Positions 48,894 to 57,883 of a DNA stretch of 64,000 bases are shown in pieces. Below the pieces are notes generated by a model. It saw nothing but the letters and a program-made list of their open reading frames with translations, ran no database searches and was not told where the DNA came from. The stretch's first letter is position 1, and every line of letters starts with the position of its first letter. The stretch covers positions 310,001-374,000 of the forward strand of contig NZ_SZPX01000001.1 in NCBI RefSeq assembly GCF_005217605.1. The letters are read 5' to 3'. The DNA is from Sulfurimonas crateris. Its GTDB lineage: Bacteria > Campylobacterota > Campylobacteria > Campylobacterales > Sulfurimonadaceae. The translations under genes were made by a program, and so were the position numbers.

Positions 48894-50741
48894 TTGAACT
48901 ACTACAACATAACACTCCTTAACTCTCCGTTAGATGCCTTTACCTACCAAAGCCAAAATACCATAGATATCGGCACAAAAGTAAAAGTAAAATTTAGAAA
49001 CAGGGAAGTTTATGGGGTTGTGCTTGCCTCATGTAAAGAGCCCGATTTTAAAACAAGCGATATATTAGAGATCAGCGACTCCATCTACTCACAAAAACAG
49101 ATCTCCCTTGCCAGATTTATCTCAACTTACTATTTTTGTTCACTTGGGGAAGCGTTTGGGGTTATGTTGCCTTATGAGTCTGGTGTGCATTCCCACGCGG
49201 AGCATGGGAACGAGAGAGTGTTACCGCAGATAACTCTTTCAACCAAACAAAACGAAGCACTGGAATTTTTGAAAAAGCACAAAACTGCACTCCTCTTTGG
49301 CGATACGGGAAGCGGAAAAACAGAGATATATATGAAGTACTTTGAAGAGATGATGGAGCAGAAGAAGCGCTCTATATTTCTTATGCCAGAAATTTCTCTT
49401 ACTCCACAGATGAACCAGAGACTCCATAAGCATTTTGGGGATGCAGTCGTTATGTGGCACTCAAAGCTCACACCAAAACAGAAAAAAGAGTCTCTGAGAA
49501 AAATTCATGACGGAAGTGCGAAGATTATAGCAGGTCCTCGTTCTGCGCTGTTTCTGCCAGTGAAAGATTTAGGGCTGATAGTCGTAGATGAGGAGCATGA
49601 TGAGAGCTATAAATCATCTTCACGCCCTCGTTACAATGCAAGAGATATTGCCATCTATATGGGAAAAATATATGATGTTGGCGTTGTTTTGGGAAGTGCT
49701 ACGCCGAGTTTGACGACCTATGTAAAGTTTCCACATTTTAGACTTAGAGGCGGGCACTTTAGCTCTAAAAAAGAGTTTTTGTATGAGCGTTCAAGCGAAA
49801 AACTCTCGCCCATCATACTGAATAGTCTGCAAAAAACGCTAGAAGCAAAAGAGCAGGCGATACTTTTTCTGCCTACTCGTGCAAACTTCAAGTATCTTAT
49901 CTGCTCTGATTGCGGGCATACATATAAGTGCGAATTTTGCAGTGTCGGGATGAGCATTCATCATAAAACGAGGTCTATAAATTGCCACTACTGCAACTTT
50001 GCTCTCTCAATCCCGCAGGAGTGTTCGGAGTGTAAAAGCCCGAATCTTATAAGTTCAAGACTTGGGACGGCGGAGGTTGTAAAAGAGATACAGAGTGAGT
50101 TTGATGAGGTAAATGTAGAGCAGTTTGACAGAGATGTCATTACAACAGCAAACAAGCTAAAGGAGGCACTAAAACGATTTAACGACAAAGAGATAGATAT
50201 ACTTGTCGGAACGCAGATGATAAGCAAGGGGCATGATTATCATGGCGTCTCTTTAGCCGTTGTTTTAGGGCTTGACAATATGCTAAATATGAGTGATTAC
50301 AGAGCAAGAGAAAAGGCGCTCTCCACACTTGTTCAAGTAGCTGGAAGAAGTGGGAGAAAAGAGAGTGCAAAAGTGCTTGTTCAAACATTCAACGAAGATT
50401 TTTTTAATGCATACATAGAGAGATATGAAGATTTTTTAGAGGATGAGAAAGAGTACAGAAAAGAGCTCTATCCGCCCTATAAAAAATTGTGCCGTATTCT
50501 CTTTTCACACAAAAACGGCATTAAAGCAAGCGAAGCTATGCAACAGATGCAAGAGTCTTTAAGAAGGTTTTCAAATGTAGAGATAGTCGGGTTTGGAAAG
50601 TGCGGCATTGAGCGGGTTGCCGATAAGTACAGATTTGAGATACTTCTGCGTTCAGATAAAAGCACCGATATCATTAAAGCTATTTCTGCATGTAAGAACA
50701 CTATGGCAGAAGTAGATATGGACCCTATCGAATTTGGCTGA
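48894..50741 (+). CDS. priA: Primosomal replication restart helicase PriA
   Basis: 615 aa. Superfamily 2 helicase restarting stalled forks. Seen: Walker A GDTGSGKTEIY, DEEH, GSATPSL, the zinc-binding cysteines (CSDCGHTYKCEFC...CHYCNFAL...CSECKSP) and motif VI QVAGRSGR. TTG start at 48894 has no clear SD apart from GGGAG inside a REP palindrome. Residues about 98-107 (HSHAEHGNER) are encoded by a REP-like element. Overlaps the Nudix remnant by 17 nt. Confidence 0.92.
   Translation: MNYYNITLLNSPLDAFTYQSQNTIDIGTKVKVKFRNREVYGVVLASCKEPDFKTSDILEISDSIYSQKQISLARFISTYYFCSLGEAFGVMLPYESGVHSHAEHGNERVLPQITLSTKQNEALEFLKKHKTALLFGDTGSGKTEIYMKYFEEMMEQKKRSIFLMPEISLTPQMNQRLHKHFGDAVVMWHSKLTPKQKKESLRKIHDGSAKIIAGPRSALFLPVKDLGLIVVDEEHDESYKSSSRPRYNARDIAIYMGKIYDVGVVLGSATPSLTTYVKFPHFRLRGGHFSSKKEFLYERSSEKLSPIILNSLQKTLEAKEQAILFLPTRANFKYLICSDCGHTYKCEFCSVGMSIHHKTRSINCHYCNFALSIPQECSECKSPNLISSRLGTAEVVKEIQSEFDEVNVEQFDRDVITTANKLKEALKRFNDKEIDILVGTQMISKGHDYHGVSLAVVLGLDNMLNMSDYRAREKALSTLVQVAGRSGRKESAKVLVQTFNEDFFNAYIERYEDFLEDEKEYRKELYPPYKKLCRILFSHKNGIKASEAMQQMQESLRRFSNVEIVGFGKCGIERVADKYRFEILLRSDKSTDIIKAISACKNTMAEVDMDPIEFG
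49187..49214 (-). repeat. REP-like palindrome, copy 4, inside priA
   Basis: GCATTCCCACG...CATGGGAACGAG, the same 28-nt palindrome type as copies 1-3, in the inverted orientation. It is translated in frame within the PriA N-terminal domain, just before the helicase core. Confidence 0.82.
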
Positions 50742-50939
50742 TGTTGTCAAAGAACCAGTAAAACGCCATCATTACTCCTGTCGTCTTTTGATAGCTCTCA
50801 TTAAACATAAACTCTTTTGCCTCTTTGGTCGGAATGTAGATAACCTCTATATCTTCATCATCTAATCCGCCTCCATCGTTTACCCTCATAGAATCATCAC
50901 ACTCGGCATAGTAGAGAGTTTGAAAGGTTGTGTTGGCAT
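50725..50939 (-). pseudogene. Nudix hydrolase remnant, C-terminal part
   Basis: About 70 codons (FQTLYYAECDDSMRVNDGGGLDDEDIEVIYIPTKEAKEFMFN...) matching the C-terminus of ADP-ribose/sugar-nucleotide pyrophosphatases of the Nudix family. No start or Nudix box precedes it. The N-terminal part lies at 52170-52355 on the same strand, beyond the fic gene. Confidence 0.75.
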
Positions 50940-50968
50940 AAATATTAAATTTACTTGATATGGGAAGA

Positions 50969-51009
50969 TGATACAATTTAAAGCCATAAATGTATCAAAA
51001 AATGATACA
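50969..51009. promoter_or_regulatory. Operator-like TGATACA repeats at the fic promoter
   Basis: TGATACA (50969-50975), its inverse TGTATCA (50991-50997) and TGATACA (51003-51009). The last one overlaps the TACAAT -10 box (51006-51011), itself exactly 6 nt before the fic ATG. The arrangement suggests repression, possibly by the Fic protein's own C-terminal helix-turn-helix. Confidence 0.6.
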
Positions 51010-51017
51010 ATAAATTC

Positions 51018-52151
51018 ATGAAAACAGATCAAAGCACAGCTTCTTTAGAAAATGAATTAAAATGGATATGGCAGAGCAGTAACTTTCCAAATTTTACTTA
51101 TGATAATGTCAATCTTGATAGTCTGACTTATAAGTTTGGTCAGCTTAAGATGGTAGAGAATTTTATGAATCGGAGCGATTCAAATGAATTGCTACTTGAG
51201 GTACTTCTTGATGAGGCAATAGCAACATCCGCTATTGAAGGGGAAATACTTCAAAGATCATCGGTTCGTTCATCTATCAATAAGCTTTTAAAACTTGGAC
51301 TTGAAGATGATTATAGTTATACCGTACAATCTGATAATCTAATAGAGATACTCATAGATGCAAAATCAAATAAAGAGCCATTAACTAAAAAAAGATTATC
51401 TGCATGGCATAAAGCACTTTTTCCTACAGGAAGCTCAGGATTAAGAGATATCACAATAGGCGCATACAGAAATGATGCCCAAGATATGCAAATAGTATCT
51501 GGTCCTTGGGAAAAAGAGAAAACTCACTACATAGCACCACCATCAAGTAGTATAGATAGACTCATGGAAGATTTTTTAAAATGGCTCAACACTAAAGATG
51601 AACAAAACAGTATCTATAAAGCTATAGTAGCTCATCTTTACTTTGTACTAATACACCCATTTGACGATGGAAACGGAAGAATCGCTAGAGCCATAACTGA
51701 TTATGTACTAGCTGGGTCAAATTTGGCAAATGCAAAGTTTTATTCTATCTCTACCATTATTTATAAAAATAGAAAAGAGTACTATGATGTTCTGGATTAT
51801 GTTTGTAAAAATACAAATCAAGATATTACACTATGGATAGAATGGTTTGTAAAACTTCTTGAAATATCTATCGATGAAACCCTTCAAAAAGTCGAAGTAG
51901 TACAAACAAAAGCAAAGTTTTGGGATAAACACAGAGCTGAAAAATTAAATGACAGACAAAAAAAAGTGATACTCAAAATGCTCTCATATCTTCCAGAAAA
52001 ATTTGAAGGTGGTATGAGGGTAAATAAATATATGAGCTTAACCAAATCCCAAAGACTCACAGCTAGTAGGGATATAGCAGATTTAGTTCAAAAAGGAATC
52101 TTTGAGAGTTTTGGAAAAGGTCGGGGTGTATATTATGAACTTAAAATATAA
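51018..52151 (+). CDS. Fic-domain protein with N-terminal inhibitory helix and C-terminal winged helix
   Basis: 377 aa. The N-terminus (residues 1-90, LKWIWQSSNFPNF) resembles the DUF4172 Fic-associated domain and holds the inhibitory motif T70-S-A-I-E74-G75, so class II autoinhibition is expected. The Fic core has the full catalytic motif HPFDDGNGRIAR (H213), implying AMPylation of an unknown target. The C-terminal part (about 315-377) reads as a winged helix. Accessory gene: it occupies the gap in a broken Nudix gene, lacks an SD and has operator-like repeats. Confidence 0.88.
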   Translation: MKTDQSTASLENELKWIWQSSNFPNFTYDNVNLDSLTYKFGQLKMVENFMNRSDSNELLLEVLLDEAIATSAIEGEILQRSSVRSSINKLLKLGLEDDYSYTVQSDNLIEILIDAKSNKEPLTKKRLSAWHKALFPTGSSGLRDITIGAYRNDAQDMQIVSGPWEKEKTHYIAPPSSSIDRLMEDFLKWLNTKDEQNSIYKAIVAHLYFVLIHPFDDGNGRIARAITDYVLAGSNLANAKFYSISTIIYKNRKEYYDVLDYVCKNTNQDITLWIEWFVKLLEISIDETLQKVEVVQTKAKFWDKHRAEKLNDRQKKVILKMLSYLPEKFEGGMRVNKYMSLTKSQRLTASRDIADLVQKGIFESFGKGRGVYYELKI

Positions 52152-52169
52152 GGTGTTAACTGAATAAGT

Positions 52170-52355
52170 TTATGCACGAAGCTGCTTTACAAGAACAAAA
52201 GCATCTTTTTCTCTGTGCCAAAGCAAAATGGCAACACTGTCATGCGTCACAACGGCTTCCCATTTTCTGCTGATCCCTTTGGCAGAGTAGTTTATTAAAA
52301 TGGGTTTTACGAAATTTGGTTCTTTAAGAGTTTGAACCCGTTCTATCTTGTACAC
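52170..52355 (-). pseudogene. Nudix hydrolase remnant, N-terminal part
   Basis: 61 codons from GTG 52355 (GGAG 6 nt upstream) to a TAA directly after KQLRA. The sequence YKIERVQTLKEPNFVKPILINYSAKG...WEAVVTHDSVAILLWHREKDAFVLVKQLR is the typical N-terminus of a Nudix ADP-ribose pyrophosphatase. The Nudix box and the rest of the middle are gone. Overlaps the upstream M23 gene by 32 nt, so it is still transcribed with it. Confidence 0.78.
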
Positions 52356-53532
52356 ATAGCTCTCCGTTATAAAAGTAGCAGACACTCTGCGGTGCACCGA
52401 CTCTTGCAAATTTTGTCTCATTTGCAATATGCAGATTTATGCTCTCGTCATAGTTTGATTTTAGCTGCAGAAATGCTGTTTTTTCCTTGCCCGAGAGTTT
52501 TTTGGTTGCAACTTGAACTACGCGAAGAGGATCAATGGCTCGGTTGTTTTTATATAGTCCAAAATGGAGATGCGGACCGGTTGAGAGCCCGGTACTTCCG
52601 ACATAACCGATGATCTGACCCTTTTTTACATAAGAGCCTTTTCTAATACCTTTTCTAAATGAGCTTTGATGTGCATATAGACTCATATAGCCATCTTCAT
52701 GTTGAACTTTTATCAGTTTGCCATACCCTCTTGTTTCTCCTATAAAGATGACTCTTCCGCTTCCTGCAGCTGCGATTGGAGTGCCTCTTGAAGCAGCATA
52801 ATCAACTCCCAAATGGGCACGATATTTTTTCAAAACAGGATGAAATCTTCTTTTTGTAAAGCGTGAAGATATTCTAGCTCCTCTTACCGGATTGCCAAGC
52901 AGAAAACCCTCTATCTCTTTTGCATCTTCATTATAAAATCTGCCGTCGTCATTTAAGTAGATGTAGTGCTTTTTGCCTCTCATCTCTATCATTGCGGCTT
53001 TTAGTGTCGGCATGGAGAATGGCTTTCCAAGACGATATTTCTGCTCATATATCATCGCCAATGTATCACCTTTGCGAAGGTCTCTTTTGAAGTTTAGCGA
53101 GTGTTTAAAGCTTGAGACAAAAATGGTTGCAAGTTTAACAGAACCCGTCTCTTTTATAATGTCAAGATATGGTGAGTGCTCTATTTTTAGGGTAAATGCC
53201 TCGACTCTTGTCTCGCTGATTATAGGCAGCGTCTCAAAAAAGTACTCAGCGTTATTTTTGTAGATGTGGATCTGCAACTCATCATTTAGAGGTATAAAAA
53301 CTTGAGAAATTTCCCCGTTTTTCTCTTTTGATATCTGGTAGTGAACGCCTGAATAGATCTCTTCGGTAAGTTGTTGCTCATCTTCATCCAAGTTGTAGTA
53401 GAGCGGTTTTAGCGGAAGGGAGTTCTTCTCTAAAAACATAAGGTATGTCTCGCCGTTGTTCCAGCGGTAAGTCTCGACCTGTGCCCCAAAAAGGGATGTT
53501 GCAAATATAAAAAATATAAAAAATCGTCTCAT
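52324..53532 (-). CDS. M23-family peptidoglycan endopeptidase
   Basis: 402 aa. Signal peptide MRRFFIFFIFATSLFGA, a long N-terminal domain, then the M23 core: HLGVDYAASRGTPI (zinc His and Asp) and HLHFGLYKN, with the other catalytic His in YMSLYAHQ. Cuts peptide cross-links in the periplasm; relatives in Campylobacter and Helicobacter (Pgp3/Csd types) set helical cell shape. ATG 53532 is chosen since a longer frame has only TTG. Divergent from the PgbA-like gene. Confidence 0.88.
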   Translation of the reverse strand: MRRFFIFFIFATSLFGAQVETYRWNNGETYLMFLEKNSLPLKPLYYNLDEDEQQLTEEIYSGVHYQISKEKNGEISQVFIPLNDELQIHIYKNNAEYFFETLPIISETRVEAFTLKIEHSPYLDIIKETGSVKLATIFVSSFKHSLNFKRDLRKGDTLAMIYEQKYRLGKPFSMPTLKAAMIEMRGKKHYIYLNDDGRFYNEDAKEIEGFLLGNPVRGARISSRFTKRRFHPVLKKYRAHLGVDYAASRGTPIAAAGSGRVIFIGETRGYGKLIKVQHEDGYMSLYAHQSSFRKGIRKGSYVKKGQIIGYVGSTGLSTGPHLHFGLYKNNRAIDPLRVVQVATKKLSGKEKTAFLQLKSNYDESINLHIANETKFARVGAPQSVCYFYNGELCVQDRTGSNS

Positions 53533-53646
53533 AAATATAACCGTAAATGTAAAATTTTTCAAAATAATTTTAAAACTCTAACAAAATTTGCCTTAGTGTG
53601 AGGTTTGTTTGCTATAATCGCACTATATTAACTATAAAGTAGAAAA

Positions 53647-55840: not shown

Positions 55841-56749
55841 ATGCAAGCAGTAAAAAGTAAAGTTTTTAAACTCTATAAACATTTGAAACTTTTTATAACT
55901 TCGTTTATAGATAGAGATCTTACTTTTTATGCTGCAAGTCTTAGCTTTTATACAATTTTTACGCTTATACCGCTTCTTATAATCGTACTTACACTATTTA
56001 CCTCTATGCCAAACTTCTCAGAGCACTACGGGAAGATACAAGAGTTTATTTTCTCAAACATTATGCCGGTTAACTCCGAGGCACTGATGGGGCATATAAA
56101 CTCATTTTTGCAAAATTCGGTTAAGATGAGCATGGTTAGTTTTGCAGTGATTATCGTATCTTCACTCCTCTTTTTTCAAAACTTCGAGTATATAGCCAAT
56201 AAGATATTTCATGCAAAAAATAGGGGGCTTTGGCAGTCTGTAACTACGTTTTGGACTCTTTTGACACTAACACCAATAGGACTTGGTCTCTCTTTTTATA
56301 TAACAGGTTACGCTGCTTCTTTGATGGCAAGCAACGAGTATACATCAGGGATAAATATTTTGCCTTATGTTCCGTATCTCATTATTTGGGCGCTGTTTTT
56401 TCTTATATTTCAGATATCTGCCAATACAAAGATCCATGCAAAAGCTTCGTTAATAAGTTCTTTTATAATATCTATAGTATTTAGTATTGCCAAAAACGGC
56501 TTTATCTACTACGTTTTTTATAACAAGGCCTATGCAACCATGTATGGCTCTTTCTCCATAGTTATGTTTCTGTTTTTGTGGATATATGCGTCGTGGATAA
56601 TCTTTGTCTATGGGCTAAAACTGTGCTACATGATAAATCGCGTATATGAAAAGAGAGCAGCCAAAGAGCAAGAGCGCGTAGAGAACTCTCCTGCTAAAGA
56701 TAGCTCCGAGACTAAGCAGGATATAGAAGAGAAAAAGATATTGGTTTAA
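55841..56749 (+). CDS. yihY: YihY/BrkB-family inner-membrane protein
   Basis: 302 aa with six membrane segments. Seen: DRDLTFYAASLSFYTIFTLIPLL and MYGSFSIVMFLFLWIYASWIIFVYGLKL, the family hallmarks. Once called RNase BN; that assignment was later withdrawn, and the true role is unclear. The charged tail (about 265-302) is encoded entirely within a 135-nt antisense overlap with comEC. Six nt after glcD. Confidence 0.88.
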   Translation: MQAVKSKVFKLYKHLKLFITSFIDRDLTFYAASLSFYTIFTLIPLLIIVLTLFTSMPNFSEHYGKIQEFIFSNIMPVNSEALMGHINSFLQNSVKMSMVSFAVIIVSSLLFFQNFEYIANKIFHAKNRGLWQSVTTFWTLLTLTPIGLGLSFYITGYAASLMASNEYTSGINILPYVPYLIIWALFFLIFQISANTKIHAKASLISSFIISIVFSIAKNGFIYYVFYNKAYATMYGSFSIVMFLFLWIYASWIIFVYGLKLCYMINRVYEKRAAKEQERVENSPAKDSSETKQDIEEKKILV

Positions 56750-57883
56750 GCCTGCCAGAACTCCTTCTTTGCCTAGATTTAGAAGCCAAAGAAGAGCAGG
56801 GTCGAAAATATCTCCAAAACCTATAAAATGAATAAATATGCTCAGAGGGTAAAAAAGAGTAAAGAGCATAGTCCAGATAATCGAGAGCGGATGGTAGATG
56901 CTGAAGTTCTCAAAGATGGCTAAAGAGAATGGAAGCATCAAGAGATAGACCCAAAGAGGCAGAAGCAGGAATTGCCATGTTTTGCTTAAATCTTTAAAGT
57001 GGATAAGAAATAAAAAGATGTAAAAAACCCCGCTCGCGGATAGCCAAAAGCCCAGTGAGAAGAAGAGCCTTGGAAAGAGGGAGAGAAGGAGCAGAACCGT
57101 TATAAACAGAGTCTGCATCGAGACTATTTTAATTCCCCTGTCATAGAGCACAAACCCCACAATCAACATTCCAAAAGCTCGGATAAGAGATGGCGGAGAA
57201 TCCAAAAAGAGCATATAGGCAAAAAGAAGCAGACCGACTATAACAAAGAGATCTCTTTTTGAGTTTCTGTATGGAAAAAATCTATCTTGCATATAGCCGT
57301 AAATGGGTCTTAAGAAAAAGAAGAGAAGAGCGCTTAGTACTCCCAGATGAAAGCCGCTGATTGCAAGAAGATGTGAGACTCCTAGTGTTGAGAAGCTTTT
57401 TTGCAGCTTAAAATCAAGCGGAGTTGCAGTGTATAGGGCTTGGTAGATGTTTGTTATCTCTTTTTCTTTATGTGAAGATGAGATAAATTCGTTCAGGCTC
57501 TGTTTTGTACTTTTTGCTTCATTTATCTTGATGATCTTGCTTGGTCCGTAAAATGTTGTGAGGTATTTGTAAAAATCCAGATCTTTTGGCCAAACTTCGA
57601 GTTGTATCTCTTGGTTTTTAATATCTTGAAGCGATTTTTTCGCGGTTGTGTAAAAGACCAGACCATCTGAGCTTTTTAGTTTTAGTACCTGATATGTTCT
57701 GTTGTTTTTGCTCTTTACATACTGCTTTAAAACAGTAGCATCTACAAGAGCCGAGTCAAAAACTATGAATTTTTGATACGCCCTGTACTCTAAAAAAAGA
57801 GAGATAAGAAGGATAATAAATGAGAGTAAGGCAAAGAGCAGAAGATCTCGCTTTGAGGTAAAAAGTGAGACCCTCTCTATCAT
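56615..57883 (-). CDS. comEC: ComEC/Rec2-family DNA-uptake channel (short form)
   Basis: 422 aa with about ten membrane segments. The competence core HLLAISGFHLGVLSALLFFFLRP is clear, together with SPPSLIRAFGMLIVG. There is no metallo-beta-lactamase domain, as usual in Campylobacterota. Translocates single-stranded DNA across the inner membrane. Starts 4 nt after dnaB; the 3' end is antisense to yihY for 135 nt. Confidence 0.88.
   Translation of the reverse strand: MIERVSLFTSKRDLLLFALLSFIILLISLFLEYRAYQKFIVFDSALVDATVLKQYVKSKNNRTYQVLKLKSSDGLVFYTTAKKSLQDIKNQEIQLEVWPKDLDFYKYLTTFYGPSKIIKINEAKSTKQSLNEFISSSHKEKEITNIYQALYTATPLDFKLQKSFSTLGVSHLLAISGFHLGVLSALLFFFLRPIYGYMQDRFFPYRNSKRDLFVIVGLLLFAYMLFLDSPPSLIRAFGMLIVGFVLYDRGIKIVSMQTLFITVLLLLSLFPRLFFSLGFWLSASGVFYIFLFLIHFKDLSKTWQFLLLPLWVYLLMLPFSLAIFENFSIYHPLSIIWTMLFTLFYPLSIFIHFIGFGDIFDPALLWLLNLGKEGVLAGLNQYLFLFYILLSLGAIFSRRVLYALLLFGCSLFIYAIYHVAQF

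What the first reader, a model, noticed from the sequence alone, without database searches (positions are those of the whole stretch)
50725..52355. A Fic gene has replaced the middle of a Nudix hydrolase gene
The Nudix N-terminus (52170-52355) and C-terminus (50725-50939) lie on the minus strand, with a plus-strand fic gene between them. About 70 residues including the catalytic Nudix box are missing, so this is replacement or insertion with deletion, not simple splitting. The host gene was coupled to the M23 peptidase gene. No transposase or obvious direct repeats mark the event.
Basis: partly seen in the sequence, partly recalled or inferred. Interest (0 to 1): 0.75.

Follow-up and report, generated by a model that had tools for sequence, protein, structure and literature searches.

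The report
Incoming Fic gene interrupts Nudix gene
A bacterium acquired a single Fic (protein-modifying enzyme) gene together with what looks like its own control switch, and it landed inside a dispensable Nudix enzyme gene and destroyed it; the event is real but of an ordinary kind, while the switch shared by many related Fic genes is the more useful result.

Summary
The two ends of a NudK/NUDT14-like Nudix gene (YffH/AdpP subfamily) flank a complete fic gene on the other strand. In relatives the gene is one frame; the window lacks 63 codons, including the Nudix box, and carries 1,250 bp instead. No other copy was found in the genome; its one other PF00293 hit is an RppH. The gene is dispensable: 44 of 135 genus genomes have no match, and in 17 of 20 readable loci M23 follows priA without it. 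The remnants show no decay, so the event is recent. The arrival is a class II DUF4172-Fic-winged-helix AMPylator with relatives at other sites in Campylobacterota and Thiotrichaceae MAGs. With the gene travels an upstream array of alternating half-sites TGATACNATTA at 18/16-bp spacing; 28 of 36 homologues read have two or more. I predict it is the Fic protein's own operator. Reading: horizontally acquired, autorepressed, probably growth-arrest or defence-type Fic, inserted by illegitimate recombination (inferred). The replacement is ordinary; the operator rule is a modest, testable result.

The parts
48894..50741 (+). priA (primosomal helicase; name recalled from the sequence), intact neighbour; overlaps the Nudix 3' end by 17 bp
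   Evidence: ORF; its C-terminal part served as anchor, found in 25 of 31 genomes and read
50725..50922 (-). Nudix C-terminal remnant (65 codons from QTLYYAE plus stop)
   Evidence: 71% identity to residues 117-184 of the G011 orthologue
50923..50968 (.). 46-bp junction stretch of unassigned origin (donor flank or filler) between Nudix and the first half-site
   Evidence: 50915-50990 matches only itself in the own genome; by eye not shared with the upstream regions of fic relatives
50969..50979 (+). predicted operator half-site 1, TGATACAATTT; its TACAAT is the second hexamer of a promoter-like site (9 of 12, TG before it)
50987..50997 (-). predicted operator half-site 2, TGATACATTTA on the minus strand
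51003..51013 (+). predicted operator half-site 3, TGATACAATAA; with half-site 2 it forms the palindrome TATCAAAAAATGATA at 50993-51007
51018..52151 (+). fic gene, 377 aa: DUF4172 (residues 16-93) with TSAIEG, Fic (121-231) with HPFDDGNGR, predicted winged helix (312-375)
   Evidence: Pfam; model; fold match
52152..52172 (.). 21-bp junction stretch of unassigned origin; supplies the in-frame TAA that ends the Nudix N-part
52173..52355 (-). Nudix N-terminal remnant, 61 codons from GTG
   Evidence: 72% identity to residues 1-67 of the G011 orthologue
52324..53562 (-). Csd3-like M23 peptidase gene, intact, upstream partner of the lost Nudix gene
   Evidence: PF01551, PF18059, PF19425

Best explanation
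A horizontally acquired, self-contained fic gene (gene plus its own operator-promoter, within a 1.25-kb stretch) replaced 189 bp in the middle of a dispensable nucleoside-diphosphate Nudix hydrolase gene, recently and with no recombinase gene left beside it; probably by illegitimate or homology-facilitated recombination of incoming DNA (inferred). The Nudix enzyme is dead because its Nudix box is gone. The arrival encodes a class II AMPylator held in check by its own inhibitory helix (motif shown, effect known from relatives) and, most likely, by autorepression: its C-terminal winged helix binds the conserved half-sites TGATACNATTA at its own promoter (inferred). By analogy with relatives it acts as a stress- or phage-triggered growth-arrest enzyme (inferred, least certain).
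For: Split orthologue with 63 codons missing. Fic relatives at 64-83% identity occur in Campylobacterota and in Thiotrichaceae/Marithrix MAGs, mostly among different neighbours: in a comparison of 11 loci only G080-G110 share two neighbours, L062 and the own paralogue's locus share one, and there is one further weak pair, L064-L065. The shared unit is the ORF plus about 50 bp upstream (by eye). The 14-nt core TCAAAAAATGATAC is present unchanged in all nine sequences compared, while four-fold codon sites match the window at 36-55%. Half-sites: 88 in 36 upstream regions against 13.3 (largest 26) in shuffles; 24 in eight plasmid-borne homologues not used to define the motif. The fic is under purifying selection: dN 0.10, dS 1.12 to L062. 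The remnants deviate at 4 of 35 and 1 of 36 conserved columns, within the range of 29 intact orthologues. ComEC and DprA families hit, Ku does not. A class II Fic with HTH that represses its own promoter through palindromes is published (CccR, PMC9755527, passages).
Against: No same-species strain with an empty site and no donor flank was available, so exact ends and a single step are not shown; 46 and 21 bp at the junctions are unassigned. Binding and promoter use are untested. The motif was read off the same sequences it was counted in, and these are related; the shuffles do not correct for that. 5 of 36 upstream regions have no half-site and 3 have one; the none group includes the close relative L063, though it does hold the palindrome. 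In the plasmid set one of eight has none, the two hits of L107 are out of register, and two of the eight have identical hits. The bare pattern TATCANNNNNTGATA occurs once in the window but 16 of 100 shuffles also have it; a one-mismatch copy of the palindrome core lies elsewhere in the genome and the reversed control pattern also had one match. G080 and G110 may be one inherited insertion. The defence role rests on family resemblance.
Confidence: 0.7

Rival explanations
1. Two separate events: the middle of the Nudix gene was deleted first, and the fic came in later at the damaged site.
For: 44 of 135 genus genomes have no match to the gene; in 17 of 20 readable loci of such genomes it is gone and no fic is there.
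Against: The remnants show no decay, leaving little time between the two events; one event is simpler.
Confidence: 0.2
2. The fic was carried in by a mobile element (transposon, integron cassette, integrase island) whose own genes were later lost.
For: Homologues lie on Campylobacterota plasmids, two of those read with an integrase nearby, and the G008 relative has an integrase gene within 2 kb.
Against: No recombinase ORF between the remnants (ORFs of 50 aa or more); no direct repeat beyond chance at the junctions; undecayed remnants leave little time to lose an element's genes.
Confidence: 0.08
3. Assembly or binning artefact: a fic fragment was joined into the Nudix gene by mistake.
For: No reads were available; the genome is in 11 contigs.
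Against: The locus lies far inside a 495-kb contig; completeness 100, contamination 0.23; the next Fic in the genome is only 44% identical; 63 codons are missing, which a simple misjoin does not explain.
Confidence: 0.03
4. The two Nudix parts are still used as small separate peptides.
For: Both frames are open and look like intact orthologues.
Against: The Nudix box is absent from both; recent age explains the openness.
Confidence: 0.02

Closest known systems
CccR of Yersinia pseudotuberculosis (PMC9755527; search listing and passages seen)
   Same: Class II Fic with C-terminal HTH; reported to repress its own promoter by binding palindromes near the -35 and -10 boxes
   Different: CccR is a secreted T6SS effector acting on FtsZ; secretion was not looked at here; sequence, operator letters and spacing were not compared
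Fic protein 2 of PDB 8CIL (PMC10628234; passages seen)
   Same: Best PDB sequence hit (E 6.5e-84) and best fold hit (TM 0.86 by query length, 40% identity); DUF4172 + Fic + HTH, with TSAIEG and HPFDDGNGR reported too
   Different: Reported as a host-directed effector that bound random DNA; no own operator named in the passages seen
SoFic single-gene anti-phage system (PMC12249575; first of four parts read)
   Same: Class II Fic with a C-terminal domain; PADLOC SoFic model hit at 8.9e-50. PMC10628234 ascribes a DUF4172 domain to SoFic as well (passage)
   Different: NCBIfam SoFic score 66 against a cut-off of 550; Pfam SoFic-like C-terminal domain not hit. An AS1-like small antitoxin gene was not searched for; (50 aa or more) lists no plus-strand ORF starting between the fic stop and 52332
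TIGR00052 YffH/AdpP Nudix family, NUDT14/NudK-like
   Same: The intact G011 orthologue scores 141 bits against a cut-off of 79.55 and hits NUDT14 and NudK in PDB
   Different: The window copy lacks the Nudix box and is a pseudogene

Membership tests
DUF4172-Fic-wHTH class II AMPylators | DUF4172 and Fic domains over Pfam cut-offs | tested here: met
   64.8 bits (cut-off 25) and 62.4 bits (cut-off 24)
DUF4172-Fic-wHTH class II AMPylators | Catalytic HPFxxGNGR and N-terminal inhibitory TxxxEG-type motif (motifs recalled and as given in PMC10628234) | tested here: met
   HPFDDGNGR and TSAIEG in the translation; I73 E74 G75 and H213 P214 D217 G218 N219 G220 R221 invariant in 34 aligned sequences
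DUF4172-Fic-wHTH class II AMPylators | C-terminal winged helix | tested here: met
   predicted helices 312-322, 335-342, 346-358 and strands 362-365, 372-375; mean pLDDT 89.3; full-length fold match 8cil. Predicted, not solved
Autorepressing Fic (CccR-like) | Fic binds palindromes in its own promoter and represses it | not testable with these tools
   conserved half-sites found; binding needs an experiment
SoFic (NCBIfam NF046030, Pfam PF21248) | score over 550 bits; SoFic-like C-terminal domain | tested here: not met
   66 bits; PF21248 not among the hits at E up to 1, while the second Fic of G008 has it
SoFic (PADLOC) | hit to the SoFic model | tested here: inconclusive
   168.1 bits, E 8.9e-50; no cut-off given by the tool
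Nudix YffH/AdpP | intact Nudix box | tested here: not met
   box absent from the window copy, present in the G011 orthologue
Transposon or cassette insertion | direct repeats at the ends and a recombinase | tested here: not met
   longest shared word 6 bp, chance level; no recombinase ORF between the remnants

The most novel reading that the evidence does not exclude
DUF4172-Fic AMPylators of Campylobacterota and Thiotrichaceae spread as one-gene units that carry their own repressor and its cognate operator: an array of alternating 11-bp half-sites (18/16 bp apart), some overlapping a -10-like hexamer, so that a toxic enzyme is self-silenced wherever it lands, even inside another gene, and can be released from repression by phage or stress.
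Probability: 0.4. Interest if true: 0.45.

Novelty: new member of a known kind. Interest (0 to 1): 0.3.

Why it matters
It is a clean, recent example of a single accessory gene replacing the core of a dispensable gene with no mobile element beside it; the undecayed remnants date it. More useful is the conserved upstream array: it gives a direct binding and reporter test for a protein family in which autorepression was the subject of one paper (CccR) among the few that my searches listed.

Tried and rejected
Same site in relatives: of 25 priA loci read only the window has this fic. G088 has a small Fic-type ORF about 0.7 kb after priA (type by eye); taken as coincidence, not tested. Viral contigs: 2 stretches matched a pattern, neither a relative. 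Phage records: 23 with a match, all below 60% identity, one covering at least 80% of the query. Junction stretch 50915-50990: only itself in the own genome. Integron-like GTTAAC words beside the window fic and in L062 were noticed by eye and dropped, not tested. Promoter and terminator scan: 12 promoter-like sites against 6.8 in shuffles, 3 terminator-like against 0.6; apart from the site in half-site 1 not used. Recognition helix against operator type: the subclade with other palindromes is lower in the whole wHTH (0.37 against 0.43 identity to the window), not in the recognition helix (0.56 against 0.53); no clean support. A first, narrow test of the junctions (50941-50972 against 52149-52176) showed no shared word of 5 bp or more; the wider test replaces it and also found one 7-bp inverted word (50936 and 52169), not tested against chance.

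Rows left out before counts: L065, L069, L070 and L050 from the 36 upstream regions (fragments or uncertain start); L065 and L069 also from the nine; of 35 usable homologues 33 plus the window went into the alignment (L050 and L051 left out); of the ten best plasmid hits eight were read (H2 and H5 left out). Of 44 genomes without the Nudix match 26 were asked for priA.
Full report
What is there. The window lies in contig 1 (495 kb) of a 2.2-Mb genome in 11 contigs with reported completeness 100 and contamination 0.23. On the minus strand an M23/Csd3-like peptidase gene ends at 52324. A Nudix frame starts at GTG 52355, runs 61 codons to 52173 and meets a TAA in the unassigned junction stretch. 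A second minus-strand piece, 65 codons from QTLYYAE (first base 50922) to the stop 50725, is the Nudix C-terminus. Between them, on the plus strand, is a complete fic gene, 51018-52151. Against each of nine intact orthologues measured 63 codons are missing, the Nudix box among them; 1,250 bp stand in their place.

Intact locus. The best orthologue, in G011, is one 188-aa protein between M23 and priA. Of 135 genus genomes 91 have a match; only the window's genome and G094 have it in two pieces, and G153 and G155 have one internal stop. The G011 protein belongs to TIGR00052 (141 bits, cut-off 79.55), with NUDT14 and NudK among its PDB relatives. No other copy was found in the own genome: the intact protein finds only the two remnants, and the one PF00293 hit is an RNA pyrophosphohydrolase.

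The gene is dispensable. 44 of 135 genus genomes have no match, 26 of the 79 of good quality. I asked 26 of these 44 for priA: 6 gave none, 20 did. In 17 of the 20 the M23 gene follows priA, from a 17-bp overlap to 293 bp apart, with no Nudix match between. G063 and G088 have other genes there and G079 ends at the contig edge. Among the 25 loci read, the two closest to the window in the PriA part besides G011 (83.0%) are G020 (84.2%) and G004 (82.9%), and both have lost the gene.

Age. At columns conserved in at least 70% of the orthologues, the window's N-part deviates at 4 of 35 and its C-part at 1 of 36; 29 intact orthologues deviate at 0-12 (median 5) and 0-17 (median 3). In a simulation neutral change at 5% of sites adds 7.3 deviations on average, at 10% 14.1. 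Absence of stops alone says little (44% and 21% of runs at those rates). The insertion is recent compared with the divergence from the relatives read, the nearest of which has 84% identity in the PriA part.

The arrival. The Fic protein has DUF4172 and Fic domains over Pfam cut-offs, HPFDDGNGR and TSAIEG, and a C-terminal winged helix in a confident model (mean pLDDT 89.3). Its best fold match is PDB 8CIL over nearly the full length (TM 0.86). It hits PADLOC's SoFic model (8.9e-50) but fails NCBIfam's SoFic cut-off (66 against 550 bits) and the SoFic C-terminal Pfam domain is not hit. So I file it in the DUF4172 branch and say that it works like CccR and SoFic. It is under purifying selection (dN 0.10, dS 1.12 against L062).

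Distribution. 46 of 135 genus genomes hold a relative at E up to 1e-30, the window's own included. The closest are L062, a Sulfurovum MAG (83%), then G095, G008 and G082 (69-72%), G080, G110 and two Thiotrichaceae/Marithrix MAGs (64-66%). Neighbours: AAA and TOTE primase-helicase genes in L062; an integrase, a second Fic and HipA in G008; others judged by eye from translations. A comparison of 77 ORFs of 80 aa or more in 11 loci found shared neighbours for G080-G110 (two genes, 78-84%), for L062 and the own paralogue's locus (TOTE primase gene, 64%), and one weak pair, L064-L065 (37%). So most copies sit in different places, but G080 and G110 may share one old insertion. More distant relatives (41-47%) lie on Campylobacterota plasmids (ten best of 992 plasmid records). 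The own genome has a second Fic (42-44%) at C1:441494, outside the window, beside AbiEii and TOTE primase genes.

The operator. Upstream of the fic the close relatives share about 50 bp and, by eye, nothing further out. The core TCAAAAAATGATAC is unchanged in all nine sequences compared, though four-fold sites match the window at only 36-55%. The unit I propose is an 11-bp half-site TGATACNATTA, alternating in direction at 18- and 16-bp steps: -49, -31 and -15 in the close group, about -73, -55, -39 and -21 in a more distant one. Allowing two mismatches there are 88 hits in 36 upstream regions against 13.3 (largest 26) in shuffles; 28 regions have two or more, 3 one, 5 none. The motif was read off these same sequences, which are related, so this number overstates the case. 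In eight plasmid-borne homologues not used to define it there are 24 hits and 7 of 8 have two or more; but two of the eight have identical hits, and those of L107 are out of register. Among 51 long ORFs of the window the mean is 0.25 and fic has the most, 3. The exact palindrome core occurs once in the genome and once more with one mismatch; the reversed control had one match. The looser TATCANNNNNTGATA occurs once in the window, and 16 of 100 shuffles also hold it, so the support is conservation, not rarity. A subclade that includes the own paralogue has other sequences there.

Mechanism. Shown: the Nudix gene is split and lacks its catalytic box; the fic is intact, has relatives across distant taxa and is accompanied by a conserved upstream array. 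Inferred: the winged helix binds the array and represses the promoter, as published for CccR, where mutating the palindromes abolished binding and raised expression (PMC9755527, passages). Inferred with less support: release leads to AMPylation and growth arrest, as reported for SoFic (PMC12249575, part 1 of 4). Entry by illegitimate or homology-facilitated recombination fits the lack of direct repeats beyond chance and the ComEC and DprA hits without Ku, but was not shown; for that literature only a search listing was seen.

Verdict. The event is an ordinary gene replacement in a gene that the genus often lacks. The operator array is the part worth following. My searches for papers on DUF4172 Fic proteins (3 papers), CccR (5 papers) and Fic autoregulation by palindromes (3 papers) showed CccR as the one clear case of an autorepressing class II Fic; the library holds only part of the literature.

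Noticed in passing
G000:C1:441494-442603 (L076), outside the window: A second DUF4172-type Fic in the same genome, beside AbiEii and a TOTE conflict-system primase gene, with a different upstream sequence; the closest relative of the window's Fic (L062) also sits near a TOTE primase gene.
   Followed up: partly
window 56660-57415 (-): A ComEC-type competence gene lies about 4.5 kb from the insertion.
   Followed up: no
L098 (G088), about 0.7 kb after priA: Another genome has a small Fic-type ORF next to priA (by eye).
   Followed up: no
priA loci among L080-L103: Repeated loss of the same Nudix gene in the genus, with M23 and priA left end to end in 17 of 20 loci.
   Followed up: partly
L051-L055, L058, L076, L114 upstream of fic: A Fic subclade with few or no TGATAC half-sites; some members have other inverted repeats there (for example in L052, L053).
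   Followed up: partly
L089 (G153): Both M23 and Nudix frames are broken next to priA; decay or sequence error not told apart.
   Followed up: no
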